Shown: positions 2,166 to 61,060 of the stretch, in pieces
How positions within the stretch are numbered: position 1 is the stretch's first letter
Layout of the letters: every line of letters begins with the position of its first letter
Assembly (NCBI GenBank): GCA_905221615.1
Contig: CAJNDT010003824.1
Coordinates: 75,001 to 139,000, forward strand
DNA: 64,000 nucleotides
Direction of reading: 5' to 3'
Source: Symbiodinium sp. CCMP2592
Taxonomy: Eukaryota; Sar; Dinophyceae; Suessiales; Symbiodiniaceae
Made by a program: the position numbers and the translations under genes
The notes under the pieces: model-generated
Told to the model about the DNA's origin: nothing
Seen by the model: the letters and a program-made list of their open reading frames with translations, nothing else
Databases searched by the model: none

Positions 2166-2431
2166 TATATTAGAACTATACTTGAAAGCTGCTTCAATTC
2201 GGAAACCCTCAAACCCCAAACCCTTCAACCCTCAGCCGAAGAAATGCCTCCAGCTGCCTAAGCCCTTACGCCCCAAACCCAAATCCCATGTCCCTTTTCC
2301 GGGGGCCCCCTGAGCCCTAAAGCTGCTTATAGTGGCCCAAGCCCTCAAATCCTAACCCTAAATCCCATGTCCTTTTTTGGACCCTAAACCCTAAACCCTA
2401 ACCGCCCCCTTTAGAAGGAGCCCCTGGTAAG
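2166..2431 (+). repeat. CCCTAAA-type block before an exon
   Basis: Degenerate C-rich telomere-type units, with perfect runs near 2,383-2,402. The block ends at TGGTAAG, the likely acceptor of the exon at 2,432. Confidence 0.6.
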
Positions 2432-2530
2432 GTGAAGCTTCCGGCGCTGAAGGGGCCGGGCATCCCGACGAGCGACACCGAGGTGCCTGTACTTCTCGGG
2501 CGCCGCCGCGACCAGGAGGAGCCAAACAAA
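2432..2530 (+). CDS. exon, unidentified, possibly kinesin 5' part
   Basis: GC-rich island between CCCTAAA DNA upstream and TTTAGGG DNA downstream. One open frame reads VKLPALKGPGIPTSDTEVPV then LLGRRRDQEEPNK. It fits the exon pattern of the whole window and lies in line with the kinesin exons, but I see no family motif. Confidence 0.4.
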
Positions 2531-2585
2531 GGTTTAGGGTTTAGAGGTTTAGGGTTTAGCGTTTAGGGTTTAGCCCTACCCACTT

Positions 2586-2680
2586 GGGTGGTTGTCAAAG
2601 TTAGGGTCCTTTTTTTGGGTACCCTAAATAGTAGGGTGCCGCAATATCCCAAAAAGGGACCATACTTTTGACAACCACCC
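2586..2680. mobile_element. introner family 1 (GGGTGGTTGTCAAA TIR), copy 1
   Basis: Starts GGGTGGTTGTCAAAG and ends CTTTTGACAACCACCC as a near-perfect inverted repeat. Flanked by ACTT on both sides (2,582-2,585 and 2,681-2,684), a 4-bp target-site duplication. Other copies start at 21,719, 33,245, 41,957, 49,436 and 53,143. Confidence 0.8.
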
Positions 2681-2966
2681 ACTTGTGAAGGAATTTAGTG
2701 TAAGTTACCATTATAGGCATCTCTAGTAAATAGTATGGTTTCCTTATTATTGTAAACGAAGTCCCTTAACAAGAACCCAGAACCCAGCCTAGCCGCAGAC
2801 CCGAAACAGCAAAGCCCAAAGTCTAAACTCTAAACCCTAAAAGAGAGCTGGACATGCTGTTTTTTTCTGAAACCCTAATCCTTAAACCCTACGCCCAAAA
2901 CAGAAAAATCCTAAACCCTAAACTTCAAACCCCAGACCCAAAATGCCCTAAATCTAAACACATCAG

Positions 2967-3062
2967 GAGGAGCCCGCGTCCCGACGGATCAGCCTCGAAG
3001 GGGAGCACACCATCAAGTTCCCCTGGAAGTCCCAAAGCAAGGAGGAGCGGGGCGGCCTAAAG
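2967..3062 (+). CDS. exon, unidentified, possibly kinesin 5' part
   Basis: Acceptor ACATCAG. Frame reads EEPASRRISLEGEHTIKFPW then KSQSKEERGG. Followed at once by TTTAGGG-type DNA. It is upstream of the motor exons, so it may encode the N-terminal part of the kinesin, but no motif confirms this. Confidence 0.4.
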
Positions 3063-4242
3063 CTTTCAGGGTTTAGTTGGGATTTGGGCTTCAGGGTTCA
3101 ATGAGGTTTGGGTTTTGTGTTCAAGATGTAGCTAGGGTTCAGGGTTTAAGGAAGATTCATAGCTTAGGTTTAGAGTTTAAAGTCCAATTAGGGTTCAGGT
3201 TTAGGGTTTGGTCACGGTTTGGGGTTTAAGGTTTAATTACGGTTTGGGTTTAGCGTTTAGGGATTCGGGTTCATTTCGGGTTTAGGGTTCAGAGTTTAGT
3301 CAGGGTTTAAGGATTACGCTTCAACTAGGGTCTAGTTACGGTTTATGGGCTAGGATTCAAGCATCGTTTAGGTTCATGTTTAAGCAAGGTTTACGGATTA
3401 GGGTTCAATTTGGGTGCAGGTTTAGGGTTTAGTTAGGGTTAGGGTTTAAGTTCAATAAGGGTCCAGCTTTAGGATTTAGGTTTAGGGTTTAAGGTTCATT
3501 TAGAGTTTAGGTTTAGGGTTTAAGGATTCGGGTTCTCTTCGGGTTTAGGGTTCAGGGTTTAGTTGGGGTTTAAGGACTGCAGTAGAATTAGGGTTTAGTT
3601 ACGGTTTAAGGATTAGGATTCAATTAGGTTTTGGGTGCAGGGATTTAGTAAGGGTTTAGGGATTCGGGTTCAGCAATAAGGGTCTAGCTTTAGGGTTCAG
3701 TTAGGATTTAGGGATTAGGGTGCAATTCGGGTTTGGGGTTCAGGGGTTAGGGTTCAATTAGGGTGTAAGTTTAGGGTTTATTTGGGGTTTAGGCATCAGG
3801 GTCCAATTAGGGTTTAGGTTTAGGGTTTACTCAGGGTTTAGGGTTCAATTCGGGTTTAGGCTTAGGGTTCAGTTAGGGTTTAGGGATTAGGGTTCAATTC
3901 GGGTTTCCGGTTAGTTTAGGGTTTAGGATTTAGTTAGGGTTTAGGGATCAGAGTTCAATTCGGGTTCAGGTGTAGGGTTGGGGTTTCGGTTTAGGGTTTA
4001 GTAAGGGTTTAGTGGTTAAGGTTGAATTAATTAGGGTTTAGGTTCAGGGGTTAGATATGGTTTAGGGTTAAATCTGGGTTTAGGTCCAGACGGCCCTGCA
4101 CTGCATCTACAGCCATGCTGCATCTAAAGCCATGCTGCAGGGAGGGGTGCAAACTCTCTAAATCCTACGCCTTAAACTCCATTGAAAGCCATCCCGCACG
4201 GATTCTAAGCCCCTTAAACCCTCCACGAAACTCCATCTAAAG
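3063..4242 (+). repeat. long degenerate TTTAGGG array turning to CCCTAAA type
   Basis: About 1 kb of GGTTTAGGG-like units with interspersed TTCAATTAGG variants to about 4,090, then a shorter C-rich stretch (TAAACCCTCC) before the acceptor at 4,242. G-rich first, C-rich last is the layout seen in most long introns here. Confidence 0.7.
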
Positions 4243-4358
4243 CACTCTTCGAGGAGTGGAAGGAGGTGCAGGTGCAGGTGGACCATGCCTTCACCGAAGA
4301 CTCGTCACAGGATGCAGTCTATTCCAGGGTTGGACCTGAGATGCTGGAGGCTTTGCCT
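4243..4358 (+). CDS. kinesin exon: N-terminal motor strand
   Basis: Acceptor TCTAAAG. Reads [16 protein letters not shown] then [20 protein letters not shown], equivalent to F-x-FDHVF...SQEEVYE...P-x-V in kinesins. The donor is not certain. Confidence 0.75.
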
Positions 4359-7300
4359 GTTTAGAGGTCAGGGCTTCGGGCTTACAGTAGAAGCCAGAAA
4401 GTTGGAATATCATTATCGTAAACCCCTTTAAGGTAAACTATAGGGGATCCTACCATTAATGCATATTCCAACTTTCTGGAGCTCCCTTTAGAGTTTTAAG
4501 GTGTCAGGGTGTTAGGGCCTGGGGTTTTAGGGCGTTGCGTCTAGGGTTTCAGGGCTGACGGTTTTAGAGCTTAGGGTTTCGGGTTTTAGGGTTTAGGGCT
4601 TTAGGGTTCTAGGGTTTGCGGTTTAAGTTGTAGGGTTTGAGTGTTGAGGAGTTGAGTTTCAGGTGCCGTTATCGGTTTATCGCAAATCACGCGCTTCTTT
4701 CGTCTTATGGTAACTTCAGTTCCACAACACCCCAAAATTTCCTTCAAGCATCCATAAGAAGCCTATACTGACTTCAATTTCATGTTTTTGACGAAAAACC
4801 CAACGCCCTAATCCTTGAACCCTAGGGCCTAGGACCTAGATCCCAGAAACTTGCAACCCCGAGATTCTAAACCCTGAACCCTTAAACCCTTGTAGAACTC
4901 TTGTAGGACCCTTAAAGATTTTTTTAAGCCCTTAAAGAGCTCTTGTGGAGCCCTTGTCGGGAACCTTCAAGTGTAGAGAACCGTAAAGAACCCTCAGGTA
5001 CCCCAAAACTCTCGACCCTAAACCAAACAAACTCTAAACCCGAACCTCTAAACCCTATCTCTAAACCCTAAACCCTAAACCCTAAGCTCTTATTCCTAAG
5101 CCAGAAACTCGTAAACGCGCACTCTCAACCCTAAGCCCTTGTTCAGCCCTCAGCCCAGGATTTCGTCCTCAAGGGCTTCCGTGGGCTCATCTGCACCTAC
5201 GGCATCACTGGGTCCGGGAAGAGTTACACCATGCCGGAAGCCCGGTGCAGGGAGGGTCTTTTCGGGGGGTGTAGGGAGGCTTTTCGGGCTTTAGGGGTTT
5301 AATGGGTTCAGGGTTCTGGGGGTTTAGGGCTTTGGGGGGTTTAGGGGTTGGGCGGTGTAGGGGTTTAGGTTCAATTAGGGCATTAGGGGTTTAGGGGTGA
5401 GAGACTGTTCGGGTTGAAAGCCCTGGACCCTAGCACCTCCACCTAAATCCCTGACCTATCCCTGACCTTGAATACCCCCAAACCTCAAACCCGTGAAAAG
5501 AAAAAGAGATGTTACTACTCTGACAAGTACAATAACTGCTTTCATTACCTGCTACAAATGTTCTATTCAGAGAGAATTAGCTACGACCATTACTAATTGC
5601 TATTCTTCCTACTTGTTACTACTGCTATCATTACAAGATTCCTGCAAGAGGATTTGAGCAAACCCCTAAACCCTACACGCCGAATCAAAAACCCTAAGCC
5701 CGCCATCCTAAATCCTATACCCCGAAAGCACAGAAACCCGAAAACCCGAAACCCCAAACCCTCAAACCACAAAGCCCTAGAGCAGAGTCTGAGTATTAAG
5801 GGACTCATAGCCCCACTTGTCACTACCCACGAGCCTCCAAGTAGGCCCTAAAATCTTACACCCTTATAGAAAATCTGTAGATCCCTTTGAAGGGACCCTT
5901 TAAGGAAGACATATAGCTACCCATGAAACCCCAAACCCCCAAACCCCCAAAACCCCCCTAAAACCCCTGTAACCCCAAGACCCCCCTAAATCCCCTAGAC
6001 CCCCCTAAACCCCCCTGAACCCCCAAAACCCCCCTAAAGCCCCTATAACCCCTATAAAGCAGCGTCGGAGCTAAGGCTCGGGGAGCAAGGGGGCTCCGGC
6101 CTGGCCCAGCGTCTCATTGAGGAGTTTCTTGGGCCTTGGAAAAGTGGCGCTTTTTGGGGGCTTTTGGGGGTTTAGGCGTTTAGGGGTTTAGGGCTTTAGG
6201 ATTCGGGGGTTTAGGGGTTTAGGCTTTAGGGCTTTTGGTGGTTTAGGGGTTTAGAGTTTAGGGGTTGGGGGTTTAATTACTACTTGCGGCGCTCCCTCGT
6301 TTTGCACTGGTGATGTGTTCGTCTTTGGTTTTTGTAGAACTTTGACAGGGATTTTTCGGTTTTGATAGGGTGTTTGATTGTAAGGATTTCTGCAAGGCCC
6401 TACAGGATTTTGATGGTCCTTCATTGGGTTTTCCATGGGTTTTCAAGTTTTTTTTGCCAGAAACCGAGGCTCTTCTTACGCGGGCTGCCGGACTTCTCGG
6501 TGAGTTTGCAGGCCGGATTCCGAAAATGGAGAGCCTTACATAGTACCCTAAATAGTAGGATCCCGATTATAAGGACACCAAAATAAGGCACCCCTATTTT
6601 CTAAAAGTCAGGAAGCAGACCCTGAACGCCAAAAGCCAACGCGAGGCAACGCCCTAGGAAAGCCACTGAAGGCCTTAGGGTTTCGGGTTTAGGGCTTTGG
6701 GTTTAGGGTTCCAGGGCTCTTTGTAAAAATCGCAAAGGCCGGAAGAGTCTCCCCTAACCCTAAGAATAGCTAGCAAGCGCGTACCATACCTTCCTTTCCC
6801 ATGTTGGAAGCTTACGGCCTCTTCTGTGAAGACTCCTTAGAACGACAAAGACTTGACAAACAACCATCAAAATCAAAGCCGAAAGCCCTGAAGCACCCAT
6901 CCCTCGCACTTCAAATCTTACGGAAATACTCAACAACCCTGCAGCCCCAGAAATCAAAAGCCCAAATCCTCAAGAACAAAGTTTTCTTGTTAACCCTTTT
7001 GGTAGCATGCACACTGTCTAATCTAGCCCAAAGCCCTAAAGCCTGGACACCAAACCCTAAACCCTAAACCGCTACGCCTCATCGAACCCCTGCATGCCCT
7101 CAACCCGCAACATGGGGGCCTAAATAGTTACCAATACTATCTTTTGGGAGGGTTCCTTATTATAACTATAGTATCATGATTAAGGCCCTAAACCCTAAAC
7201 CCTCTAACTCCTCTCAACCCTAAACCCTAAACCCCTATCGAACCCCCTAAACTCACAGGACTCCTCTAGTACCCGTACCCGAAGGCCATCCAGCTCCACC

Positions 7301-7430
7301 AGAACGACTTCACCGACCTCGGGCTCCCGGAGCTGCTGGGCGCATTTTGTTTCTGAGGGAGTTTAGGGTTTCGGGGTGCTACCATAAAGAAAGGAAGAAA
7401 GAACAACAACATACATGTATGTATATATGT

Positions 7431-7487
<57 letters not shown>

Positions 7488-10400
7488 CATACATATACAT
7501 ACTTATATATATATGTAGATATTATGTTTACATATATATATATACACACACACATAGAGATGTATATGTGTACATATATACACATATGTATACATATGTC
7601 TGTGTATATACATAGATATGTTTATGTTGTTGAAACCTGATGAGATGGTACACATCCTTGGGAAGTTTCCCACAATATACCAATACTACTAGACATATCA
7701 AGATCACCAACACATGTCACGACAATCGATTATGAGTTCCATCATGAGATCCTGAACCACCCTGTACAGCCATCCAAGCCGCTTAATCAAGACGGGCCGA
7801 CCTGAACCCTCGACCCCAAACGCCTGGCCCGATCACTACTATCCCTAAACCCACAACACGCTTGACAAGCTTGAATCCACCGACCCCTCAACCCCCAACA
7901 AATCCTGAGCCTTTACTACTCAAACCTAAAACCCCTCAAGCCCAAACCCCCCGAAAACCTCAGAAACAGAGACGCTCCGAGGATGCCGAGTCTGAAAGAT
8001 CTCAAGGTCCAGAGCGGCAACGGCTCGGAAAATACCGGCGCCCAGGAGCTCTCCTGGCTCCTGAGAGAGGGCTTCCGTGGTCTCTTTGAGAGGGGGCTTG
8101 ACAGAGGGTTTCATAGGGATTCTGAAATCCCTAAACTCCTAGGACCCTGGAGCCCCTAAACCCTAAAAGCCTAAAGGCTTAAGCCCGAATCCCAAACCTA
8201 AGCCTGCAACACCCCAAGCATTCGATAGAGCCGCCTTTCAAACCGTCGGAGGAGCAGATCAACACTAATTTAAACCCAAACGAGAATCACAGCAGCCTTA
8301 TCAACACCAAGATACTCTTCTGAATCCCGAAACACCCCCCTGAATCCTTAAAGAGGACCTTAACACGCCACCCCTTGGGTTCGAAACCCTAAACTCCAAA
8401 ACACTAAACCCCCAAACACCGTAAAGCCCCACAACTTTTAAACCCCGCACCCTCAAACCCTACACCCTAAAACCCCAAAGCCCTAAAGAGCACCGTTTTG
8501 GGAGGAGTTCAACATCCCAAGACAACTTTGAAAGCCCATAAAGTCTTTACAAAGCCCAAAACCCTGGGGGAGTAAACTCAACACGCAAAAAACCCTAAAT
8601 CCTAAAGCACTAAACCTTAAACCCTAAAACCCAAAACCTTCAAACCCCAAAACCCTAAAACCCTAGACGCTAAAACCCCGAAAGTACACCCCCTTTGGAA
8701 AGGCCCAAAACCGTAAGACCCCAAACCCTAAAACCCTAAACCCTAAAGCCCTAAACCCCAACCCTCAAGACTAAAAGAAAACCCCAAACCCTAAAACCCT
8801 GAATCCTAAAGCCCTCTAAGAGCCCTTGAACCCTACACCCTTAAATCCTTAAAAGGGAACCCTACTATAGAACCCCCAGCCCTAAATCCCAAAGCCCTGC
8901 AACTTTAAACCCCGCTCCCTTAAACCCCAAAACCCTAAAGCCCCAAAAGCCCAAAGCCTTCAAACCCCAAAACCCTAAAGCCCTACAGATCCCTTAAAGG
9001 AACCCTTAGAGATCGGGACGTCCGGCTCGCAGCAGAGCGTGTGCTTCAGACGCGAGGCCTGGTACCAGACGGGTGTTTCCACATCACCCTCATGCACAAC
9101 AACGCCATCCTAACGAACGACATCCAGCTCGCAGGCAGGCAGCTTTAGAGTCACGCCACGGCACAAGCAAGAGCACGCCGAATCTGTTGCAAGACATTCT
9201 CTCAACTGCGGGCAGGACCCGAACTTCTGCAGCGGACCCTGCCGCGAAGAGTGAGAGCCGGGCACAAAATGAGCCTTGCCGAATGGCAGTACCGGTGCCA
9301 GCTCACCGAGCTGTGACAGGCAAGACCCGTTCAAAACACAACGCAGCCTGCAGATCGCCCTGAGCTTTGACTCGGGAACCCTGGTCTTTCAAGCGCGCAA
9401 GGACTTGCACGCCGGCTCAGCTTTCGGCTGAAGCAACACAGCAAACCTCGCTTGAAAGTGACTCATAGCCAGCATGGTTTCGATGTCGAGCCATCGGAGC
9501 TGGCGCTGGAGCGCAGACAAGCCCGGCCGATGGGAGGCCAGAGCCAATGCATGCCGTTTCTCTTGCACGGTCGGTGCTGCGGTATGGCGCCACACAGGTG
9601 GGAGTCGTGCCGTGGAACCTCGACTATCCCGATTTCTTTGATGCCTTCCTGACAGACCTTCCAGAGCCGCGCGTCGGACTCCCATATTGACCATGTTTGA
9701 CGACATGACACTTCGTTGTGTATGTTTCCGGTAGTCAGGCCCACACTTGGGAACGCCACGAAACGCACGAAGAGCACTACCTGTGCTACGAGCGGCTTCA
9801 ACCAGGCACCATAAGATAACTATAATCCTGCAGACTTACTTCGCGGACATCAAGAGTGCATACTAGCGACAGGTATGCCGACGTACTATCACGGATGCCC
9901 TCTCCACTGCATCACGGGCATCCTGCGTTATGGCCTGCTGCCATCGAACGCGCACGACTTAATTTGCTTAGCCTGGAGTCACCACACCAACACCGAAGAA
10001 ATGCCAAAGCTTGACTAACGCAGGTTGAAGGGCAACACGACTTCTGGCGGGCAGAGATCTACGTGACGCCGTCGCTTAAGACGGCGTGCTGGTATGCCAC
10101 GCCGACGCGGTTGCTTGGCAGCGCAAGTGTCACGCAAGCGTCATTGTCAGAGCACCAGCAAGCAGCTTGTCAACGAGCAGCCTGCGCAGGTTGGGCCCCG
10201 TGCCGACGAATGGCTACCCTCCATACTGCCACGCAATACATGTCGTCCAACCCCGTCTTCAAGGCAAACGGACAACGATTCAGCACTAGTATTCTCCTTG
10301 ATGCTCTTGTGACCGCGCATACATCTGACAGGCGATACTGCTGCCCAGCCTAGCAAGATCCGACAAAAGGGGGGCGAGCAGTAAGACGACCTGTGCATCC

Positions 10401-13400
10401 AAGGCGCAATGTCGACAGTGAGCCGCCTTGCACGCCACGTCCAGCACAAACCCAGCTTCCGTCCATCAGGATTAATCGTGCGTCGCGGTTGCCACTTGGC
10501 TGACCGGAGCGGCGTCCTGCACATCAACAGCCACGAGGCCACAGAACGAGCCTTGCTTTCAACCGTTACGCCTGCAAACGTTTCGACGCAGGACTTGACG
10601 AAGTTCTACCCGCCGGACTATGCCAGCTTCCGCTTGGCAGTGGAGAGCCATGGTGGCTTGACGAAAGAGACTGAAAGCCTCTCCGCATGTTGGTGTCTCC
10701 TCCAACCAAGGCTTAGATCGCACGCACAACGGCAACTACGAGTAGACAAAGGTCGCGATCTCAGTTAGGCAGCCCCTACTGTGGAACCAGCTGAAATGGC
10801 CTCTGCACGGCCACTCGTAGTGAAGTCCGAGTCTGTGTGTCTCGACCCTCGCCAAGGCCAGCCCGCTGCAAGCGTTGCGCGGAGCCGCCCGAGCCGACGA
10901 GAAGAGACAAAAAGAGCAACGAGAATTCGAGAAGCACTGCAGCCTCTCCAGACCGACGGCGTAACGCGCTAACAGCCCATGCAACAAACTCATGACACCA
11001 GTGCCGCAGAACATCCAGCTCGAGAGTCCATCTCCCAGCCCCACACCCTCGCCAACGTTCGACGAGGCGAGAGTGATTAAACAGATCTATCGAGTAAGCT
11101 AGAACCACGCGCCACCCCGAAAGCCGAGGACTGTCGCCAGATGGGTAACTCAACGTCAACGGCCGACGAACGCCAGACCGGCAGACCGTTCAGGCGACCA
11201 CGACTGCCAGTACAGCAACGAGATCACAAATGAACCGTCCAGTAGACTCAGCAAACACGAAGCAGGTCAAACGGCGAGTGGTGGTGGTTCCACAGCGGCA
11301 ACTGGTACCACTACACGGGCGTGTCTCAGCCGCAAGCAGGCAGCAGCACACACGCACTCAAACACACGCACACACAGACACACGCACATGCACAAGCTCT
11401 GCACAACAACGCCAAAGAGCGCCCCGGCGAATACCCGAGACCCAGAAAGGACCCGCAGCATCCCATCGCCACGCCAGGAACAGGTCTGCCACGGGGTCCG
11501 TGTGATGGGGTGGTGCCGGTGGTCGCGAGAAGACGGACTCGACTTCAACGTCCCCACCTTAGAAATTCCGACGCAGCCGAAGACAAGCATTCAAGCAACA
11601 ACACCGAAACAACGACGACGCCGAGGACTTCTAGGCTGGAATGAAGCCACCGCCTGAGTCCCGAAGTCGGCTCAATTCCAGCCGCAGGATGCAGATCAGT
11701 TGTGCACGACGGCACCGAGGTCAAGCCGCTGCAGGAGCTGCGCGGCGATGTCCACCCGCACCAAAAGAAACCTGTCGCGCGAAGCGACCCAAAACGATGA
11801 CTGCGTGCAATGGTGTAGTAGTCTTCACACGTACCAGTCCGAGATCACGCACGAGCAAAGCAATTTCTTGCCGACGCCCGATAGCGTGACCAGCTCAAAA
11901 CTTGCGCCTGTCCGAGACGCCTTAGACACGACGCTGCACCTCCGACTAGCAGGCGGGCCTTTCTGTGCAGTGCTGTCCTCTCGTCGCCGTCACTCTCCCC
12001 CACACCCCCCGCCCCCCACCTCCCCCCCAAAAAAAATCAGGAAAAGGATGATTCTGAGGACTGGCACATTATACATTGCCCGCCTATGCTGATACATCAT
12101 TTCACAACAGCATAACATCTACATCGTCACTTTATTGCCTCGTTCGTTATAAATTTCTAGAATCTCTGGGGACATTTACCACATTCGCCCCTCATTCGTT
12201 TCATCTATCACACCACCTCGTTCGTTTTATTCAAGATGGTTCTGGGGACAAAATGCCTCATTCGTTTTCATCATTTCCTCACCTCATTCATTCCTCCATT
12301 CTTGAAGTGTTCTACCCCAGATTTTTCACATTTTTTCAAAGAGTATCCAATTTACCACCACCAAAAATCACAAAAAATAACAAAATATTAAATTTCTGGG
12401 GTCGATCACTTTATTCGTTATTCACAAATTTCATCACAAAATCACCAGGAAGTTAATATTATGTTAATGGTAAATTAATTGTCTTTTAGTTCACTGTTAA
12501 ACTAAATATTGTTATTCAAAATATACATTTGCGATATTTATATATTTCTTCATTATTGAAATAGGCTTGATTACAATGTTCAGACGTTGAATTTGTAAGA
12601 TATATTTCTATGATTGTTCTAAGGAGGCTCTTGTAAGTGGAATACTGACACATCCCGTTATGATAAAAGTCTTCATCTTCATCATACCAGAAGCATTTAA
12701 TTACATCAACATTATAATTAAGACGCCAATATTCCGTGTATTTTTCAATAAGTTTTATATTCTTTGTGTCATTAATAAACTTTATCATTAACTTTTTACA
12801 ACCATCACTGTATTGCATGTGTGTGGATTCATTGATAATGTCTTTAAAATATTGTTTCTTTTGCTTTAGGTTTCTTAGGTCTTTGTAGTTGAAGTCAAAA
12901 TGATGCAAAAGACAGTGTAATTGTTTCTTCCCAGTGCTATAGTGCTATACTTCTTGAATTCTTCTTTATTGTATTCGTTTTCTAATTTATGCATGTGTTC
13001 GCATTTCCAACAACGATTAAAGCATGTGATCATATTAGTGATGTTTTGGTCAAACATTTGACTTAAAACATCTGAATGTCTTTGCTTGCAACATTTACAT
13101 AAACTGCGCTCAAATTTAAAATCAAAGGTCATAAACACCCTACTATACTAAGGCTATTTCTCTTTAAGTCCGTTTTTATTCATTCATAAAACCTTACGGC
13201 GGGCAAAAATACATTGTCGTTCATCTTTCATCTCACTTCATATAAAAATTTCATTTCATGATAAATAATGTGCCGGTTTCTCAGAATCCCCTATAGTGTT
13301 TAGGTTAGGACGAAGCAATCAATCGGCGAGAAGTTCGCCATCATTGGACAGGTGTGCCTGTCTCGCTTGTGGTTTCTTAGTATGCCTCCACCTGTGTCCA

Positions 13401-21716: not shown

Positions 21717-21718
21717 GA

Positions 21719-49362: not shown

Positions 49363-49553
49363 TAAGTTTCCGAGAATTAGGCTTGCCTTTTTCGGGGTCC
49401 TTGTAATAGGGATCCTACTATGCAGGGTGCTCTATGGGTGGTTGTCATTTGAGTACCCTAAATACCATGTGCCGCAATATAATAACGACCCCAACAAGGG
49501 ACACTAATATTGACAACCACCCATATGAGGGTCCCCTGTTTGCGGAAAATCCC
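49363..49553. mobile_element. family 1 introner nested in a family 2 introner
   Basis: Outer: TAAGTTTCCGAGAATTAGG...GGGATCCTACTATGCAGGG, then ...GGGTCCCCTGTTTGCGGAAA ATCCC. Inner 49,436-49,522: GGGTGGTTGTC to TATTGACAACCACCC. The stretch to 50,558 is otherwise unique or TTTAGGG-like (50,005-50,130). Confidence 0.7.
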
Positions 49554-52718: not shown

Positions 52719-55700
52719 TGGTTTGGGGATTTTTCCGGAGGTTTTGGGGATGGGCTCTTGAGGGGTGTTAAGGGTGTGAAGGGTGTTTAGGGCTTTCGGT
52801 TTGCGGTTTAGGGCTTAGGGTTTGGGTCTTCATGGATTTTGGGGGTCTCAAAAGGCTTTCAGGGCTCTTGGGACTCTTCAGGATGTCATATACCTCAGCC
52901 TTAGATAGCGAACGGGGGAACTTTAAACTTTTTAGCTCTATCTTAAAAAGTTTGAACTTTTTGGGACCCGGCTGTTGAAGAAGAGAGCAGCCTTAAACCC
53001 TAAACCTTACCATGCTCAGCATGATTCCTGGGCCGGGGATGCTCGGCAGCATCCATCCACCCCTTTTTGTAGCATGGTCAGACTTGTCCTGAATGCATCG
53101 TCCCAAAGGTCCCAAGGGCCCCCAAAAGCCTTAACCCTATATGGGTGGTTGTAAAAATTATGGTCCCTTTTTGGGTACGATCCAGAAAGGGACCCTAATA
53201 TTGACAACCACCCATATAAACTATAGACTAAATGAAGACAGAAGCCTTAAACCCTTTCAGCAATGAGTCGAGTTTGCGAGCTTTTGATGTGCTTTGGTGC
53301 ACTCCAGACCAGGTTTGCTGTGCTGCGTTTCTAGTGCCACAAGCCTTTCACCTCAAAAAAAGCCTTGTAAGTCCCTCCACCTAAACCTTCAACACTCCCA
53401 ACAAGCTGGACCCTAAACCCTAACCCTAAACCCAAAAGCCCCTTAACACCTAAACCCCTAACCCCTAAACCCTAAGCCCTTAACCCTGAAAGCCTAAGCC
53501 CTGAAATCCTTAAACGCCGCAGCAGGTGCTTGAGGCGTCTCATCCAACAGGAGCCGCAGCTGGCGCAGAAGCAGCAGCTGCCCTTGGCCCGCGGCATAGC
53601 CTCTGCCATGGCGTCACCTGTCTTGAGGTTTGGTACAAAGGTTACTAGAAGGGATACTTTCAGGCTTGGGGTTTAGGATTTAGGACTGTTGGGGTTTGGG
53701 GTTTAGTAGGGTTTCTTGTAAGGTTTTGTTTGAAGGATACTGTAGGGGTTTCCATAAGGCTTGTTTTTTTTTTGGCGTTTTACCGTCAGGGTTACTATAC
53801 GTGCCTGATATTGGTCTCCGGGGTTCCTAATGTATTTACATAGTTTAAGCTAGCCCAAAAACCCTGAGGCCCTGAGTTAGTTTGGTGTTGAAGTTTGTGA
53901 TAGGATTCTGCTAATGAGCCGTCGGTCCTTGCAACTTGCGCTGCGTTCCATGTTATGCTGGGTGTTTTGGAGCTGGGTTTAGGATTGCAGCGCAGAGGAC
54001 GAGACGAAGCGATTGCAGGTTGTTTCAGAATCTCCTGGTCGTTGCGTGCGGAGCTGCGCCGTTGATCCCCCAACTCCAAGCCGCCAGAAACTATCGGAAC
54101 CCGCAGCCCTGAAGCCTATAACTCCAAGCCCTAAACCAGGCACTTGCATGGACTCTTGGAGCCTCTGATCCACCAAGAGCTGAAGCCGGAGAACGTCTTG
54201 ATCTTCGAGTCGGGCTCCGGGCTCCTGGCGAAGGTCACGGCCCCTACGATTGCAGGGAGGTAACCAGGGTTCCAGGGATGAGGGGTTTCGGGCTCTGAGG
54301 TTTGGCATTTAGGTTTAGGGTTTAGGGTTCAAGTTCTCATCCTAGAGTCCTTACCTAAATTTGACCTAAATCCAGCTGAGGACGTGGGCTTCAACAAGGC
54401 CATCTTTGGACACGGGCCGCTGGCCTACAAAGCGCCCGAACTCTTCGATGGGAAGCCTTGCAGTATGGCTTCGGACGCCAGGGCCTTACATTCATACGGC
54501 TGATGGACAAAATCCTGCATTACCCATAATAAGGAATATATCATAATTCCCCTAGTTTAGGGTCCTTGGGGTAATGCAGGATTCTGTCCATCAACAGTAG
54601 GAGGCCAAACGGGGTTTTAGCCTACGGGGGGTTTAGTAGGGATTAGGGTTCCCATAATCGGGTTCGAATTCAGGAATCCCTACCCCAAGAATCTTAAACC
54701 CTCCCTTTTGGCCTCTGTTGGAGGTCTGGATCTGAGAATCCGGTCGTGGCACGCAATGCTCCCCCCCAAACCCCCAAAGCAGCAAACCGTACTGTTTAGG
54801 GTTTAGGGTTTAGGGGCAAACTCCTTAAAACCCCAAGCCTTCAATCGTCAAACCCCTGCGCCCTTGAGGGCAGAAGGTGCCTTATCACAAGTAAAAAATA
54901 CCCCAACCCTGATCGAATTACTAAGTCCCGTACGTTATGTCTCGACAGGTCTATGCTTTTGCCATCCTCGGCTGGGAGCTCCTCTGTGCACAGGAAGCCT
55001 GGGCAGGGTGGCTGGGCATTCCTGTAGAGTTCAGCGTTTGGAGTTTAGGGTGTTTGACTTAGGGATTCGGATCTGGGTTGAGTCTTTTTGGGGGTTAAAG
55101 GGGTAAGAGGCGTGATCTACGGTTTGGTGTTTGGGGTTTCAAACTTTAAGGGTCTAGGCCATGGTCTGGTCAGCGCCCTACACGGACTAAGGCGTAAGGC
55201 TTAAACCGCTCTGGAGGGAGGAAGCTCGTCGACTTGGAGTTCGGGGGTTCAAGGATTGTCAATTACCATTACTGCAATGATTACGATGATTGTGTTGTCA
55301 GTACATCAAAGGTACACAGATTTGTGCAAGCTCAAAGCCATCTGCGTGGAGAACAAGCGGCCTAGCATGGATGAGGAGGCTTCGAAGTCGCGCTTGGGCA
55401 AGCTCATTCAGGACTCGTATAATCGTACGTAGTGGTAAAAAGAAACATTATGTAATCAGAAAAGTCATACTATACAAGAATGGATGTACAGTGGCATACC
55501 CACCGCTCCGTTATAATTAAGATTTTTATGGACACCCTAAGCCCTAAACCTGAAGGCCCTCACCCTCACCCTAACCCTAACCCTAGATGCTCAAGTTCGA
55601 CCCTGGGGAAGGAGGCTTGGGCGCAAGACCCCGCTGACCGACCCTCCTTCGAAACGATCCGCGAGAAGCTCTCACAGCCGAGCATCCCCAAGCAGTTGTC

Positions 55701-55745
55701 CAAGGAAGTGCCGAGCTATTGGTCGGGACAAGACTTGGACCAAGG
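52617..55745 (+). CDS. protein kinase domain gene with altered catalytic motifs (multi-exon)
   Basis: Seven exons give, in order, HEHLAKILGLYW...VLEPAP (beta4-beta5 and hinge), CLRRLI...LARGIASAMA, HLHGLLEPLIHQELKPENVL (catalytic loop, usual HRDLKPEN), AKVT+DVGFNK (usual AKVTDFGLxK), LAYKAPELFDGK (APE motif), SD+VYAFAILGWELLCAQEAW (DVYSFGIVLWELL), and WAQDPADRPSFETIREKL (end of the fold). The layout is that of tyrosine-kinase-like Ser/Thr kinases. The catalytic Asp is Glu and Arg is Gln in HRD, and DFG is DVG, so activity is doubtful. I cannot find the Gly-rich loop or VAIK exon; they may be missing or further upstream. Confidence 0.82.
53143..53213. mobile_element. introner family 1, short copy
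   Basis: 71 bp, GGGTGGTTGTAAAAATTATG to CCTAATATTGACAACCACCC, flanked by ATAT on both sides. Confidence 0.8.
53526..53627 (+). CDS. kinase exon: alphaD-alphaE
   Basis: Acceptor CGCAGCAG. Reads CLRRLIQQEPQLAQKQQLPL then ARGIASAMASPVL, matching G-S-L-x-x-L-I...R-L-x-x-A-x-x-I-A-x-A-(M/L). Confidence 0.7.
54139..54239 (+). CDS. kinase exon: catalytic loop, GC donor
   Basis: Acceptor TAAACCAG. Reads HLHGLLEPLIHQELKPENVL then IFESGSGLLAKVT. Ending at a GC donor (ACG|GCCCC) joins to DVGFNK in frame. Confidence 0.8.
54381..54476 (+). CDS. kinase exon: DVG and APE, GC donor
   Basis: Acceptor CCAGCTGAG. Reads DVGFNKAIFGHGPLAYKAPE then LFDGKPCSMASD, GC donor (GAC|GCCAGG); the next exon starts VYAFAI. 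Confidence 0.8.
54501..54598. mobile_element. introner family 7, copy 2
   Basis: TGATGGACAAAATCCTGCAT TACCC to GGGTAATGCAGG ATTCTGTCCATCAACAGT (one arm shortened). Near-identical to 46,959-47,060 including downstream flank. Confidence 0.8.
54949..55002 (+). CDS. kinase exon: alphaF (DVYSFG-like)
   Basis: Acceptor GTCTCGACAG. Reads VYAFAILGWELLCAQEAW; GC donor TGG|GCAGGG likely. Confidence 0.78.
55312..55424 (+). CDS. kinase exon: C-lobe
   Basis: Reads DLCKLKAICVENKRPSMDEE then ASKSRLGKLIQDSYN, containing the (K/R)RP...L-x-x-L-I segment before the RPSF helix. Confidence 0.65.
55597..55745 (+). CDS. kinase exon: final C-lobe helix
   Basis: Reads EAWAQDPADRPSFETIREKL then SQPSIPKQLSKEVPSYWSGQ. 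(D/N)P-x-x-RPSF-x-x-I is the end of tyrosine-kinase-like domains. The frame closes at TGA 55,792-55,794; whether that is the true stop is unknown. Confidence 0.78.
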
Positions 55746-55796
55746 CACCGTCAGCACTTTGCTTTTGTGGCTTCTGGGGTTGAGGGCCGACTGACT

Positions 55797-55975
55797 GTCC
55801 CTCTCTCGCTGCCGCTCTTGCTGTCTCTCTCGCTCTCGCGGTATCTCTCGCCGTCTCTCTCGCCGTCTCTCTCGCCGTCTCTCTCGCCGTCGCTCTCGCC
55901 GTCGCTCTCGCTGTCGCTCTCGATGTCGCTCTCGCTCTCTGTCTCTCGCTCTCGCTGTCGCTGCTGCCACGGGTC
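55797..55975 (+). repeat. CTCTCTCGCCGT-type minisatellite
   Basis: 12-13 base units TCTCTCGCCGTC, diverging to TCGCTCTCGCTG. Ser/Leu/Pro (+) and Arg/Glu (-) ORFs are artefacts. Confidence 0.9.
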
Positions 55976-56274
55976 TCATATGCATCGGTTCGGGTGCAGC
56001 ATTAATCCTTCCGCGTGTGTAGGTCCTAAGCAGGGGGACTACACCCAAGACCCTAAACCCTAAGCAGGATCGTAGAAAATGCCCTGTGACGCACAGGCTG
56101 GGTTGCTGTCCCTGTGGCTGAAGAGACGTTTCAGAAGCTCTCAGCCCTTTTCGTCGTCACGCAGCCACGGGAGCTCGGGACCGGTCGCGATGCAGCATCC
56201 TATTCTCGGGCTTACAGCAACTTGAAGCAGCTTGGTGCGAGCAATGAGACAAGAATCTGTTAGTTGTGGCTGAG

Positions 56275-56505
56275 CTTCGCTGCTGCCCATGGGATTGTGG
56301 CTGTGATGGTTGCTGTTTCTGTTACCGTTGATGCTGCTGTGGTGGCTGCTGCTCCTGTCGTGGTGGTGGTGCTGCTGCTGGCGGTGCTGGTGGTGCCGGT
56401 GGTGTTGCTGGTGGGTCTCGTTGTTGTGGTGGTGCTGGAGGTGCTGGTGGTACTGGTGGTGTTGTTGTTGTTGGTGGTGGTTCTGGTGACGATGCACTGT
56501 TCTGG
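56275..56505 (+). repeat. GGTGNT/GCTGNT-rich low-complexity DNA
   Basis: Interrupted GTT/GGT/GCT trinucleotides directly before the first PARP exon. Poly-Val/Leu, Thr and His frames all open; not taken as coding. Confidence 0.75.
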
Positions 56506-56513
56506 GCCCCGAG

Positions 56514-56735
56514 GTTGTGGTGTGCGTGGCGCATTGAGCACCAAAGTCTTTGGGACAAGTATGTCGCGGAGAGGAACGACGTCGTCCGGCACCTGCGCCA
56601 GCTGGAACGGAGCTCCATCGAAACTCCCCAGTGGAGGAGCAGATTTGATTTGCAACCTCAACCTCGAACAAACTTGGGTGACGAACCCTCCACAGCCCCA
56701 AGCTCGGCCTACAACTATGTCGCATGGGAGGAGCA
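56514..56735 (+). CDS. PARP exon 1 (of those seen)
   Basis: Acceptor GCCCCGAG. Reads LWCAWRIEHQSLWDKYVAER then NDVVRHLRQLERSSIETPQW. Open to 56,872, so the end is approximate. 56,740-57,170 has one more open frame (RFQQILQLNAPN) that might be an exon. Confidence 0.7.
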
Positions 56736-59700
56736 AGCTGGAGGACGCCACGGTGGGAATGCCAGACGAGCTCTGTGCCCCCATTGGTCAGTCGGCTCAA
56801 CCTGGTTTTTGCGATGTTCAAAGTGCAGGGTTCAGCGAATGTCCCCTGAGCCCTAAAACCCAAAGCCGCTGATTTGCATAGACGGAGAGAGCCACCAGCT
56901 TGATTATTGAGGCCGTCCTGGCAGGTTTTTTCAGGGTTCAAGTGTTACTGGGCGTTTGGCGTTCAGGGTTTAGCGGTTGATCCAACGCAACCGACCTTGT
57001 TGGTAGGGTCCACTTTCTACGCTGAGGCTAACATAAGAACCCTGTCAACAGGCAGGTTCCAGCAGATCTTGCAGCTGAATGCCCCAAACTACGGTTTTGG
57101 CCAGCGAACCCTAGACTCTATGCCCCGAGTCCTAAGCCCTAAGCCCAAAACCCCAAAAAGGCCCTGAGCCCTGAGTCCTAAGCCGAGAGAATCGAATCTC
57201 AGCATCCGGTCATTGAGAGACTGCTGCCCAGGCGAGAGGTACCTGCTCCATGGCACGAAGCCAGAGGTGCAAGGGCCTGCTAGGGTTGATGATATAAATC
57301 CTGCATTACCTTAAGGACCCTAAACTATGGGAATTATGGTATATTCCTTATTATGGCTATGGGTAATGCAGGATTTATATCATCAACCGTAGGGGTGCTT
57401 CTCAGGTTGACCCTAAACCCTAAATCCGACACCCCATGCAGGTTTAGGGCTTCAAAGGGTCGAAGCCACAGGTGCTTCTGGACATTCTACATCAGGGCTT
57501 CAATGACAAGCTCGCGAGTTTGAGAGGAATGCCCCTTGGTCGCGCAATTAGAATCAGGATCCGATAACCCTAACCGCAGTTAACACTGGAATCCCTGCAA
57601 GCCCAGCTAAGACGGAAGCGACGAAAGCCCTTTGTCTAACTTTTTGGCAGCCCGTCGCAGACGATTCGATTCTATCTCGACGGCCCGGCACCGTTGATTC
57701 AAGACGCCGTCATGCGCTTTCCCAGGTTCGGCGCCGGAGCCTACTTTGCCGAAGATCCGGACACTTGCCTGATCACGCGTTATCGTTGGCGGGTAGGGGT
57801 CCGCTGTCCTGGCGCAGCAGGGCTGGAGGAAGTTCAGTTGCAGATGGTTGTGACCGATTACACAAACTTATTGAAGGGTCTTAAGTGGCAGAAATGAATT
57901 TGCACATCTAGGCACAACAACATACCACCATCTGAATATGCTCTGATATACCATAGTTTATCTTTTTTATATCAGAATACACCCGAATATTCCATAATAC
58001 ACCATAATACCCCATACTCATACCATAATATAATAGGCCTTAAGGGTTCAGAGCCCAGGAGAAGATCGACCAATACGCGCGGGAGGATCCGGGCCACGAG
58101 ACCCCTGGCCTGGAGACCTTGCACTCGCGGCTCTACCGCGCAGGTGGCCACCAGCATCCAGGACCGCACCGAGGCTTTGGGGTTCAGGGTTTAGGGCTTA
58201 GGGTTTGGGGTTCAGGGCTTTAGGGCTTTAGGGCTTCAGGGTTTTGGCGCTCTGCCTCCAACCGCCTTCTCCGCACTTCTGATCTGGATTGCTTGCATAA
58301 TTGTCTCTTGCACCTTGACGTCTTGACCCGTTTCTTCCTACGTAACGCCTCGAAAAACACTCTCAGACATTAGGGAGCTCCGTTACAGGACCCTAAATAG
58401 CAGGATCCTTGTTATCAAGAGCTCTGAATCAGGTACGCTTGCTTTGAAAAGACTCCCACACCCTGAACCTGAAAAGGAATCCCGACACCCTATTCTGATT
58501 ATTGACAAATAGTTGCCGTTATATTAAAGCCCTTATTAACTCCTAGAAGCCCGATAAATGGCTTAAACTGTTATGGATGGGATCCCACTCCCATCACTCA
58601 GGGCTCTCTGTACTGCAAACTTCAGAGCTTCATACTAATCCCTAAGCTTTTGGGCTTGGGTCGCAGGTTTAAAAACCCTTTAAAAAATCCCTGTAATTCA
58701 GTGAGGAACGCCTCTAAAGAAAGCCTTTTGGGAGGAGATCACATCTTCTACTGCTTCGTGGTTCGTGTGACGTGTGGCGCGTGCTTCCTGAGCCGCGGCT
58801 TCAAAGATTCGCTCCTGGGCTGGGCTCTGAAAGCATTTATCAAAGGGTAAATGGAGGGACCTTAATGGGGACCCCTACCCTATAATGGGCTATATAATGC
58901 TTAAAGCATTTAAGTTTTAAGTTTTAGGGTTCAGAGCTTTTAGTTTAGGGTTCAGGGACACTTAAGTTTTAAGTTTTAGGTTTTCAGGGGATGAATAGTA
59001 CTTAGACTTCATGCTGTCAGCAATCTTGTAAAATCCTCATAAGACCCCCCATAACCCCCCGAAAGCCCAACTCTGATTGTCAAAAGCTACAGAACCGCTC
59101 AAAGCCCTGGTACAAACCCTAAACTGCCCTAAACCCTAAACCTTAAACCCTAAACCCTAAACCTTAAACCCTAAACCCTAAACCCTGAGCTCTCTTTCCG
59201 TAAGTTCCTTTGAAGAAAGAGCCCAGGCTCCGCGACCACGACAGCGACTTCCAAGTCTTCGTCAACGAAGACCGCCGGGTGACCCGGCAGAGTGCAGAGC
59301 TTCAAACGCCTGGCTAATGTAGGGGTTTAGGGGTTTAGTAATCAGAATAAGGAACCCAAAAGCCTGGCTACTTGAATTGCGGCTTGGGGTTTAGGGCCTT
59401 TAGGGGTTTTCCCTTAATTGCGGCTTGGGGTTTAGGGCCTTTAGGGTTTTTTTAGGGTGTGGGTTTAGGGTTTAGGGTTTTTGGGGTTTAGGGCTTTACT
59501 TAATGGTGGGTTCGTAAGGGGTTGTAGGTGGTTTGTAGGGCTTTTAGTGTTCTTCAAGCCTGGCTGATGTAGGAGTTTAGGGGTCTAGTAATCAGAATAG
59601 GGTTCCTCTCAAGGGGTCTACTATAAGGGTTCTGTATAAGGCTACTTTAATTGCGGCTTAATGTAGGGGTTTAGGGGTTTAGTAATCAGAATAGGGTTCC

Positions 59701-61060
59701 TTTAAAGGGGTCTATGTTCAGGGTCTGCATTAGGGGCCTAAAAAATTACCGATACAATGCGGCTTCGGGTTTAGGGCCTTTAGGGTTTTTGGGGTTTAGG
59801 GCTTTACTTGATCGTGGTTTCGGGTTTAGGGCCTTTAGGGATTTTGGGGTTTAGGGCTGTACTGGATCGCGGTTTCGGGTTTAGGGCCTTTAGGGTTTTT
59901 GGGGTTTAGGGCTTTACTTGATCGTGGTTTCGGGTTTAGGGCCTTTAGGGTTTTTGGGGTTTAGGGCTGTACTGGATCGCGGTTTCGGGTTTAGGGCCTT
60001 TAGGGTTTTTGGGGTTTAGGGCTTTACTTGATCGTGGTTTCGGGTTTAGGGCCTTTAGTGTTTTTGGGGTTTAGGGCTGTACTGGATCGCGGTTTCGGGT
60101 TTAGGGCCTTTAGGGTTTTTGGGTTTTAGGGCTTTACTTGATTGTGGTTTCTGGTTTAGGGCCTTTAGGGTTTTTGGGGATTAGGGCTTTACTTGATCGT
60201 GGTCTCGGGTTTAGGGCCTTTAGGTTTTTTTGGGTTTAGGGCTTTACTAGATTGTGGTTCCGGGTTTAGGGCCTTTAGGGTTTTCGGGGTTTAGGGTTTA
60301 GGGCTTTAGGCTTTACTAGATTGTGGTTTCGGGTCTAGGGCCTTTGGGGTTTATGGGGTTTAAGGGTTTGGGGTGTTTGGGGTTTTGGGGTTTAGGGTTC
60401 AGGCCCTGTAGGGCGTTTCGTGTTTAGGGCTTTACTAAATGGTGGGTTCGTAAAGGGTTGTAGGTGGTTTGTAGGGCGTTTAGGGTTCTTACTATACAGT
60501 GTTTAGTTTACAAGGATTTGAGGGTTTTTATGGTCTTTTCTAAACGAAGCGCATGCTCACCGAGAAACAAAACCAATCGGCTTCCGCGGTGTTTTGAAGC
60601 TGTCTCGATGCGAAACTGAGGAGCTTTCGGCTGTGCCCGGATCAGAGCCTCGAATTCCCTACCACACCTTGGTGGTGCAAACGGGGAAGGAGGCCAAGAA
60701 GAGAATCGCATCCCGGCCCAGCAAGGGTTTGAGTTTCGGATTGTCATGCTACCCTTGCTGCTCTTTCTGCATGCTGCTGCTTTTGCCACCACTGCGGCGA
60801 CGACGACGACGATGTTGCGGCTTCAACTCTACCTGCCACTGCGACTGCGACTGCTAGTATTACCGCTACCTCTGCCATCACCAGCGGCTTTGTTAGCACT
60901 GTAAATATCTATCCTCAAGGAGTCAGTGTCGTAAGACTGATTTTGGCGATAGTGTCATTGATGCTCTCGCGTTTCGTCCAAGGAGCGCTTTCGAGAAGTC
61001 ATCTCCTTCAGTGCCAACCGCGCCTATCCGGAGTACCTGCTGGCATACCAAAGGGTATAG
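56514..61060 (+). CDS. poly(ADP-ribose) polymerase catalytic domain gene (multi-exon, ends TAG)
   Basis: Transfers ADP-ribose from NAD+ to targets. In order: WRIEHQSLWDKY (PARP start, usual RIxNxxLWxxY), RYLLHGTKPEV (HGT of the NAD-binding H-Y-E triad), VLLDILHQGFNDKLASL, FGAGAYFAEDPDT (GxGxYFA, Tyr of the triad), KIDQYAREDPG...LHSRLYR (SSKxxxY-like), LRDHDSDFQVFVNEDRRVT, ELSAVPGSEPRIPYHTLVVQ and ERFREVISFSANRAYPEYLL AYQR. In the last exon the usual catalytic Glu/(P)EY strand is PEYLLAYQR, followed by V and TAG at 61,058-61,060. N-terminal domains, if any, would lie upstream. Introns are TTTAGGG/CCCTAAA and introner DNA. Confidence 0.85.
57231..57284 (+). CDS. PARP exon: HGT motif
   Basis: Reads GERYLLHGTKPEVQGPA, ending where a family 7 introner begins. 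Upstream acceptor TGCCCAG. Confidence 0.8.
57285..57387. mobile_element. introner family 7, copy 3
   Basis: GTTGATGATATAAATCCTGC ATTACC at the left, GGTAATGCAGGATTTATATC ATCAAC at the right, perfect 26-bp TIR; interior TTAAGGACCCTAAACTATGG. Confidence 0.88.
57472..57524 (+). CDS. PARP exon: I-x-x-x-GF helix
   Basis: Acceptor AAGCCACAG. Reads VLLDILHQGFNDKLASL, equivalent to I-x-x-x-G-F-(D/N)-x-R-x-A. Confidence 0.78.
57726..57770 (+). CDS. PARP exon: GxGxYFA motif
   Basis: Acceptor TTTCCCAG. Reads FGAGAYFAEDPDTCL. The frame continues to 57,897 but the tail is not PARP-like. 57,900-58,050 is AT-rich. Confidence 0.82.
58059..58172 (+). CDS. PARP exon: KxxQY region
   Basis: Acceptor GAGCCCAG. 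Reads EKIDQYAREDPGHETPGLET then LHSRLYRAGGHQHPGPH. TTTAGGG type DNA follows. Confidence 0.78.
58173..59226 (+). repeat. intron DNA with decayed introners and a CCCTAAA array
   Basis: 58,185-58,250 TTTAGGG-like; 58,375-58,460 decayed family 2 (GGACCCTAAATAGCAGGATC); 58,650-58,850 unique, open but unconvincing; 58,846-58,905 half of family 9; 58,910-58,990 AGTTTTAAGTTTTAGG repeats; 59,105-59,190 CCCTAAA array. Confidence 0.5.
59227..59307 (+). CDS. PARP exon
   Basis: Acceptor AGAGCCCAG. Reads LRDHDSDFQVFVNEDRRVTR then QSAEL. Placed in the loop region before the last two exons; family fit moderate. Confidence 0.55.
59308..60500 (+). repeat. 1.2-kb TTTAGGG-type intron DNA
   Basis: Degenerate G-rich units throughout. 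59,315-59,760 has several copies of AATGTAGGGGTTTAGGGG with AGTAATCAGAATAGGG. Followed by the alternating array below. Confidence 0.75.
59800..60300 (+). repeat. 55-bp units in an alternating 110-bp higher-order array
   Basis: Units end TTTACTTGATCGTGG (type A) or TGTACTGGATCGCGG (type B) with common GTTTCGGGTTTAGGGCCTTT. ATCG falls at 59,811, 59,866 and 59,921. Order A-B-A-B-A-B-A-A-A, the last copies more diverged. Confidence 0.88.
60621..60702 (+). CDS. PARP exon: PYHTL region
   Basis: Acceptor GAAACTGAG. Reads ELSAVPGSEPRIPYHTLVVQ then TGKEAKKR. Confidence 0.78.
60983..61060 (+). CDS. PARP last exon with stop
   Basis: Acceptor TCGTCCAAG. Reads ERFREVISFSANRAYPEYLL then AYQRV and TAG. 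(Y/F)REF-x-x-(F/Y)...YPEYL-x-x-(Y)-x-R is the end of PARP catalytic domains. Confidence 0.88.
   Translation, partial: ERFREVISFSANRAYPEYLLAYQRV

What the first reader, a model, noticed from the sequence alone, without database searches (positions are those of the whole stretch)
2166..60500. Introns are giant telomere-repeat inverted repeats: TTTAGGG after an exon, CCCTAAA before the next
Over most of the recognised exons the intron's 5' part is G-rich (TTTAGGG type) and its 3' part C-rich (CCCTAAA type). Examples: exon 3,062 G-rich to C-rich to 4,243; exon 5,243 to 6,060; 18,440 to 19,422; 19,535 to 20,523; 21,150 to 21,677; 32,117 to 32,634; 52,718 to 53,526; C-rich into 59,227 and G-rich out of it. 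Random insertion of telomeric DNA would not orient by exon. The RNA of each intron could fold so that its ends meet, the C-rich half doubling as a polypyrimidine tract. Together with GA/GC donors this suggests that structure, more than donor sequence, defines introns. I know of no description of telomere-type intron arms.
Basis: partly seen in the sequence, partly recalled or inferred. Interest (0 to 1): 0.93.

Follow-up and report, generated by a model that had tools for sequence, protein, structure and literature searches.

The report
Telomere-like repeats point outward from exons
In this alga-like (dinoflagellate) genome, many short coding pieces of genes tend to be bracketed by telomere-type repeats, CCCTAAA on the left and TTTAGGG on the right; it most likely reflects how mobile DNA became introns and then grew telomere-like arms, rather than a new way of splicing.

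Summary
Two genes were mapped with homologous proteins: a kinesin (22 introns, 2029-24776) and a kinase-PARP (16 introns, 53613-60982). In 32 of 38 introns the 5' half is more G-skewed than the 3' half; 15 carry a G arm then a C arm, 2 the reverse. Genome-wide, C-arm/G-arm word pairs 100-130 bp apart number 30,554, G-arm/C-arm pairs 9,660. In DNA from other contigs, C-to-G gaps are enriched for coding sequence. G-then-C is its own reverse complement, so it marks exons, not the transcribed strand.

In the 22 kinesin introns, ends pair no better with their own partner than with other introns' ends; there is no polypyrimidine tract or AG-free zone; 11 of 38 introns are one-armed, arm-less or unclear. 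The 38 introns carry target-duplication-like repeats at their splice sites, like introners. One verified intron is a TIR element holding CCCTAAA units that its five sister copies lack. Best explanation: introner insertions whose telomere-like seeds grew into arms. Moderate confidence in that growth step, seen directly once.

The parts
1981..24866 (+). kinesin-type gene (part), 22 introns placed by homology
   Evidence: spliced 489 aa, no stops, 68% id over 488 aa to P0001; Pfam Kinesin E 4e-14 on draft pieces
2029..2431 (+). intron 1, GC donor, C-type repeats in both halves
2516..2966 (+). intron 2, GA donor, G arm then C arm; direct repeat CAGGAGGAGCC at both junctions
3042..4253 (+). intron 3, GA donor, G arm over most of its length, one C unit near the acceptor
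4347..5158 (+). intron 4, GA donor, G then C
5233..6075 (+). intron 5, GC donor, G then C
6124..6468 (+). intron 6, GT donor, G arm only
6512..7284 (+). intron 7, GC donor, G then C
7332..7981 (+). intron 8, GC donor, short G then short C
8046..14988 (+). intron 9 (6.9 kb), GA donor, C-type in both halves; holds an ORF at about 13999-14526
15069..16352 (+). intron 10, GA donor, G throughout (exception)
16372..17059 (+). intron 11, GT donor (or GG donor with AG|G, one base off), G throughout (exception)
17145..17558 (+). intron 12, GT donor, G then C
17600..18012 (+). intron 13, GC donor, G then C; own ends pair best among 22
18072..18349 (+). intron 14, GA donor, C-type only
18399..19421 (+). 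intron 15, GA donor, G then C
19523..20522 (+). intron 16, GC donor, G then C
20575..21044 (+). intron 17, GA donor, G then C
21146..21685 (+). intron 18, GC donor, G then C
21717..21848 (+). intron 19 = one whole TIR element (21719-21846, TIR GGGTGGTTGTCAAA) with CCCTAAA units at its 3' end; own ends pair best among 22
21908..22425 (+). intron 20, GA donor, weak reverse order
22475..23708 (+). intron 21, GC donor, G then C
23784..24776 (+). intron 22, GA donor, weak reverse order
53524..61057 (+). kinase-PARP gene (part), 16 introns (53613-60982) placed by spliced alignment to P0002
58811..59226 (+). kinase-PARP intron with strong G then C arms
59279..60620 (+). kinase-PARP intron, GT donor, G throughout (exception)
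2586..2680 (.). sister TIR element GGGTGGTTGTCAAA..TTTGACAACCACCC inside intron 2
33245..33346 (.). sister TIR element
41957..42057 (.). sister TIR element
49436..49522 (.). sister TIR element (degraded)
53143..53213 (.). sister TIR element (degraded)

Best explanation
The introns are mostly old introner-type insertions: terminal-inverted-repeat elements that inserted into coding sequence, duplicated a few bases of target and were spliced out using AG|G at the duplicated target. Some such elements carry telomere-like seeds just inside their ends (TTAGGG after the 5' TIR, CCCTA before the 3' TIR). These seeds, or telomeric DNA copied into them, grew into degenerate TTTAGGG and CCCTAAA arms. Because a TIR element is its own mirror image, arms grown this way read G then C whichever way it inserted and whichever strand is transcribed, so an exon left between two insertions reads C-exon-G. 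Shown: the exon-phased order, its genome-wide excess, duplication-like matches at splice sites, and one verified intron that is a TIR element with CCCTAAA units its sisters lack. Inferred: that most introns were such insertions, and that the long arms of the other introns arose the same way, by slippage, gene conversion or telomerase.
For: Exon-phased order: 0 of 3236 shifts and 0 of 5000 permutations for kinesin; 32 of 38 introns skewed in the predicted direction. Genome-wide 30,554 C-to-G against 9,660 G-to-C word pairs at 100-130 bp. C-to-G gaps are coding-like: z>2 in 9 of 19 against 2 of 25 other gaps in 100 kb of other contigs, p 0.003; with a further 45 kb 10 of 20 against 3 of 27, p 0.003; 10 of 19 places on contig C1, 5 on each strand. 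Target-duplication-like match of intron bases +1 to +4 to the first exon bases: 0 of 2000 permutations, 38 introns. Intron 21717-21848 is a TIR element whose alignment with 5 sister copies shows a 27-base block of CCCTAAA units in its 3' end that all five lack; TTAGGGTCC (5') and ACCCTA (3') seeds are each seen in 3 of the 6 copies. Complementary 8-mers between first and last 40 bases: 7 of 38 own pairs against 7.5% of mismatched pairs.
Against: Only one intron shows growth inside an intact TIR element, and only half of that family's copies carry the seeds. I saw no terminal motif shared by the other introns (kinesin junctions printed, kinase-PARP). Across six TIR families in held DNA, the G-type bias just inside the ends is 13:6 in one family, 9:4 in another, and near even or opposite in four. 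Five introns are G throughout and two reversed. Twenty exons of other kinesin genes show no clear orientation. In the held DNA itself, exact 10-mer pairs 100-130 bp apart do not show the genome-wide excess (window 1 C-to-G against 5 G-to-C; random loci 0 against 2), although wider gaps of 161-330 do (window 77 against 34, random loci 56 against 6). The extra 45 kb taken alone held 1 testable C-to-G gap, not coding-like, and 2 others, 1 of them above z 2.
Confidence: 0.45

Rival explanations
1. Telomere healing of double-strand breaks: a break in an exon is extended by telomerase on both 3' ends, the ends are rejoined, and the scar (TTTAGGG)n(CCCTAAA)n is spliced out as a new intron.
For: Predicts the same strand-symmetric G-then-C order and arms near exon ends; staggered breaks can leave short duplications like those at +1..+4; telomeric repeats inserted at repaired breaks are described in mammals (PMC7215372, start of abstract in search listing only).
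Against: Head-to-head joins should abut, but in held DNA G-to-C 10-mers 0-30 bp apart are rare (window 1, random loci 0; C-to-G 3 and 1). In 18 of the 20 kinesin introns that have a G unit the first exact one lies 15-179 bases inside the donor, not at the junction. Genome-wide 0-30 counts could not be obtained.
Confidence: 0.2
2. Splicing filter: telomere-like repeats spread at random and survive in introns only where they suit splicing, G-rich near donors (as G-run enhancers, recalled) and C-rich near acceptors.
For: Residual skew remains after masking all heptamers with up to one mismatch: 26 of 38, p 0.002.
Against: No AG or AGG exclusion before acceptors in 22 introns; no pyrimidine excess; introns with G repeats in the 3' half are evidently tolerated (15069-16352, 16372-17059, 59279-60620).
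Confidence: 0.2
3. One reading: each intron folds through its arms so that its ends meet, and this structure defines the intron.
For: 10 of 22 introns pair better than shuffles.
Against: Own partners are not better than ends of other introns; 11 of 38 introns are one-armed, arm-less or unclear and 10 have one type throughout.
Confidence: 0.1

Closest known systems
Introner elements of dinoflagellates and other algae (Gozashti et al. 2022, PMC9860276, passages seen; Roy et al. 2023, not held, known only through citations)
   Same: Target-site duplications and TIRs around introns; splice sites recruited from the duplication; GA/GC donors allowed; MITE-like length of the 21717 intron.
   Different: The term 'telomer' has 0 hits in the main text of PMC9860276; no telomere-type arms in the passages seen.
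Inverted-repeat introns of Amoebophrya (Farhat et al. 2021, PMC7789003, passages seen)
   Same: Complementary 5' and 3' intron ends and 3-5 nt direct repeats over the boundaries.
   Different: There the inverted repeats are 8-20 nt with no family-specific motif; here they are telomere-type, degenerate and up to about 1000 bases. In the passages seen telomere repeats are named only at scaffold ends.
Introns with 'simple inverted repeats at both ends' in Prorocentrum cordatum (PMC10666404, passages) and introners in Effrenium voratum (PMC11114475, passages, section 14)
   Same: Long introns with introner-like ends; E. voratum has matching GC content (50.6-50.9%) and introns peaking at 1 kb.
   Different: The term 'telomer' has 0 hits in either main text.
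Interstitial telomeric sequences and plant telo boxes (PMC3022908, passages seen)
   Same: Telomere-type units inside genes, including introns; a telomerase-and-recombination model of spread was proposed.
   Different: Telo boxes are short motifs enriched in 5' UTRs; here arrays flank exons in a preferred order.

Membership tests
Introner-derived introns | Target-site duplication at the two splice junctions | tested here: met
   Match at +1..+4, 0.49 against 0.285 expected, 0 of 2000 permutations, 38 introns as a set
Introner-derived introns | Terminal inverted repeats | tested here: inconclusive
   Clear in 21717-21848; 7 of 38 introns share an 8-mer complement between ends against 7.5% by mismatching
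Introner-derived introns | Many near-identical copies sitting as introns in different genes | tested here: inconclusive
   Six copies of one family in the window, one of them exactly an intron; genome-wide copies not counted
Amoebophrya inverted-repeat introns | 8-20 nt inverted repeat near the boundaries | tested here: inconclusive
   Found in 7 of 38 introns at 8 nt within 40 bases of the ends
Telomere-fusion scars | Head-to-head arrays that abut | tested here: inconclusive
   Held DNA: G-to-C gaps 0-30 bp 1 (window) and 0 (random loci), C-to-G 3 and 1; genome-wide search unanswered
Break-repair interstitial telomeric sequence | Empty orthologous site in a relative | not testable with these tools
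   No genome of a relative was available ('It has no relatives here')
Structure-defined introns | Specific pairing of the two ends of the same intron | tested here: not met
   Own -92.7 against mismatched -96.7 kcal/mol, 22 of the 38 introns tested

The most novel reading that the evidence does not exclude
Telomerase, or telomeric DNA copied at break or transposition ends, is a regular source of intron sequence in this lineage: introns are born or enlarged as telomere-type scars, so that exons across the genome sit like miniature chromosomes capped by CCCTAAA and TTTAGGG.
Probability: 0.2. Interest if true: 0.92.

Novelty: new variant of a known kind. Interest (0 to 1): 0.74.

Why it matters
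Where introns come from and why dinoflagellate introns are so many and so long is open. A genome with about 320,000 matches to a 17-base telomeric word, ordered on average by exon, offers many sites where intron origin, telomere-like repeat growth and transposition can be dated and compared. It also gives a practical exon-finding signal in such genomes.

Tried and rejected
AG- or AGG-exclusion as the reason for the C arm: rejected on 22 kinesin introns. Distance to the previous AG averaged 14.5 against 22.1 after shuffling; AGG 78.9 against 94.3, with 467 of 500 shuffles at or above. Polypyrimidine tract: rejected. Intron-specific hairpins: rejected. Seeds in all TIR families: weak, two of six families biased. 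Orientation in other kinesin genes: no clear bias. Extra sample of 45 kb: too few tracts by itself. A first version of the coding test with a smaller codon model and gap limits 60-350 (score 10 or more in 5 of 20 C-to-G, 0 of 11 G-to-C, 1 of 24 same-type gaps) preceded the version quoted on the same DNA. Looking for prior description: searches listed no paper that I recognised as describing telomere-type intron arms; I saw passages of ten papers only (PMC7789003, PMC11453091, PMC10666404, PMC11508785, PMC11114475, PMC8045281, PMC9860276, PMC11782384, PMC7023079, PMC3022908) and no hits for my terms in PMC4201569. Roy et al. 2023 and Mendez et al. 2015 are not held. Species: not named by any tool. 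Effrenium voratum fits by GC content and intron length but is unproven.

Full report
What was checked. The window is part of a 1.098 Gb, 5383-contig assembly (G000:C3824:75001-139000). Its TTTAGGG-type repeats, GA/GC donors and AG|G acceptors are dinoflagellate-like; no tool named the species. GC content (0.506, from the base counts) and intron length resemble Effrenium voratum as described in PMC11114475 (passages, section 14), but that is a lead, not an identification.

Exons without looking at repeats. A codon-usage scan found many short coding islands. A draft of the first gene found one homologue, P0001 (597 aa), and local tblastn placed its pieces in order. With hand-chosen junctions the spliced product is an open 489-aa frame, 68% identical to P0001 over 488 aa. 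A draft of the second gene found P0002 (476 aa; Pfam PF07714, PF00069 and PF00644, the last recalled as the PARP catalytic domain). A script that required GT, GC or GA at the donor and AG at the acceptor, and favoured AG|G, placed 16 introns. So 38 introns rest on homologous proteins, not on cDNA. Donors are GC 15, GA 15, GT 8.

The observation. Counting exact 7-base telomeric words, kinesin introns are 15.2% covered, its exons 0%, the rest of the window 7.5%. In 38 introns the 5' halves hold 1665 G-type and 409 C-type bases, the 3' halves 972 and 1057. GC skew is higher in the 5' half in 32 of 38, and still in 26 of 38 after masking every word within one mismatch of the repeat. For kinesin, none of 3236 circular shifts and none of 5000 permutations of intron and exon lengths reaches the observed statistic. 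For kinase-PARP 62 of 2437 shifts do. By arm type the 38 introns are: 15 G then C, 5 G throughout, 5 C throughout, 2 reversed, 11 one-armed, arm-less or unclear.

Genome-wide. The word CCCTAAACCCTAAACCC occurs 161,265 and 159,311 times on the two strands, against 38 and 21 for the reversed control. CCCTAAACCC followed after 100-130 bases by GGGTTTAGGG occurs 30,554 times (control 3); the opposite order at the same spacing 9,660 times (control 1). Overlapping words inside one array are counted more than once in both, so these are not counts of independent places. In the DNA held here that spacing alone does not show the excess (window 1 against 5, random loci 0 against 2), while gaps of 161-330 do (77 against 34; 56 against 6).

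Coding test. In 100 kb from 20 contigs (round positions on contigs that also hold a kinesin match elsewhere; one locus has 2078 N), gaps of 70-300 bases between tracts score as coding (z>2) in 9 of 19 C-to-G cases and 2 of 25 others, p 0.003. In the window the same test gives 7 of 11 against 6 of 30 in the kinesin region and 10 of 14 against 6 of 28 in the rest. A further 45 kb added one C-to-G gap (not coding-like) and two others (one above z 2); together 10 of 20 against 3 of 27, p 0.003. Of the 19 distinct places whose letters one search printed, all on contig C1, 10 score z>2, five on each strand; one search printed no letters, so the opposite order has no matching sample. Against this, 20 short exons of other kinesin genes showed 4 C:4 G upstream and 3 G:2 C downstream within 150 bases, so the pattern is an average and not a rule.

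A logical point. TTTAGGG..CCCTAAA reads the same on the other strand. The pattern therefore cannot tell the transcribed strand; it says that repeats point outward from exons. Any mechanism must explain exon phase, not strand.

Mechanism. Hairpins specific to each intron are not supported: the first and last 200 bases (or half introns) of 22 kinesin introns pair at -92.7 kcal/mol on average with their own partner and -96.7 with others; the own partner ranks first in 2 of 22. The C-rich part is not a polypyrimidine tract and not an AG-free zone. What the junctions do show is a short direct repeat: intron bases +1 to +4 match the first bases of the next exon at 0.49 against 0.285 expected, 0 of 2000 permutations, the signature of target duplication described for introners (PMC9860276, passages). 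One intron, 21717-21848, is a TIR element with TIR GGGTGGTTGTCAAA; the TIR word has 13 matches in the window against 0.7 expected, forming six elements. Aligned with its five sisters, the intron copy has an extra 27-base block of CCCTAAA units at its 3' end, beside an ACCCTA seed; that seed is in 3 of 6 copies and the mirror seed TTAGGGTCC in 3 of 6. That is the only directly visible case of arm growth. In six TIR families in held DNA, inward G-type against C-type ends are 13:6, 7:6, 9:4, 4:4, 6:8 and 4:3, so seeds favour the right order in two families only.

Conclusion. The exon-phased order is established. The best reading is introner insertions whose symmetric ends grew telomere-like arms (0.45); break healing by telomeric DNA (0.2) and a splicing filter (0.2) remain open; the folding model is least likely (0.1). 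Intron origin in dinoflagellates from introners is known; telomere-type arms in a preferred order around exons were not seen in print in the searches, which cover open-licence papers only and of which I read passages, not whole texts.

Noticed in passing
window 24102-24199, 24259-24462, 25795-25895, 46973-47045, 54511-54583, 57297-57375 and several loci: At least six families of short TIR elements, mostly 70-200 bp (TIRs such as CCAGAAAGTTGGAATA, AGGATCATGGGACTTAGT, GTTCATGGGTAGTTATAA, GAGTTTCCGAAAATAGG, AATCCTGCATTACC, GGGTGGTTGTCAAA) recur in held DNA.
   Followed up: partly
window 16426-16976: 84-bp unit repeated 6.6 times at 100% matches inside intron 11, built of telomere-like words: a very recent tandem expansion.
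   Followed up: no
window 42237-42346: 27-bp unit ATTATCCTAAACCCTTTATGGTAAGTT repeated about 4 times at 97%, next to a TIR end of the CCAGAAAGTTGGAATA family: repeat growth inside another element.
   Followed up: partly
window about 50649-52124 and from 63367 to the window's end: Long uninterrupted frames made of repeats of the type AFLAQLDTGECLAWG; the first lies between a G tract and a C tract, the opposite of exons.
   Followed up: no
window about 13999-14526: Open frame of about 175 aa inside the 6.9-kb kinesin intron on the same strand; no Pfam match above cut-off.
   Followed up: no
window 27497-27571 (+) and 27711-27785 (-): The same 25-aa peptide is encoded on both strands about 140 bp apart: an inverted repeat.
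   Followed up: no
window 34124-35292: 53-bp GC-rich tandem repeat, about 19 plus 4 copies, open in several frames.
   Followed up: no
window 53524-61057: Gene joining protein kinase and PARP-type domains in one protein (homologue P0002: PF07714, PF00069 and PF00644).
   Followed up: partly
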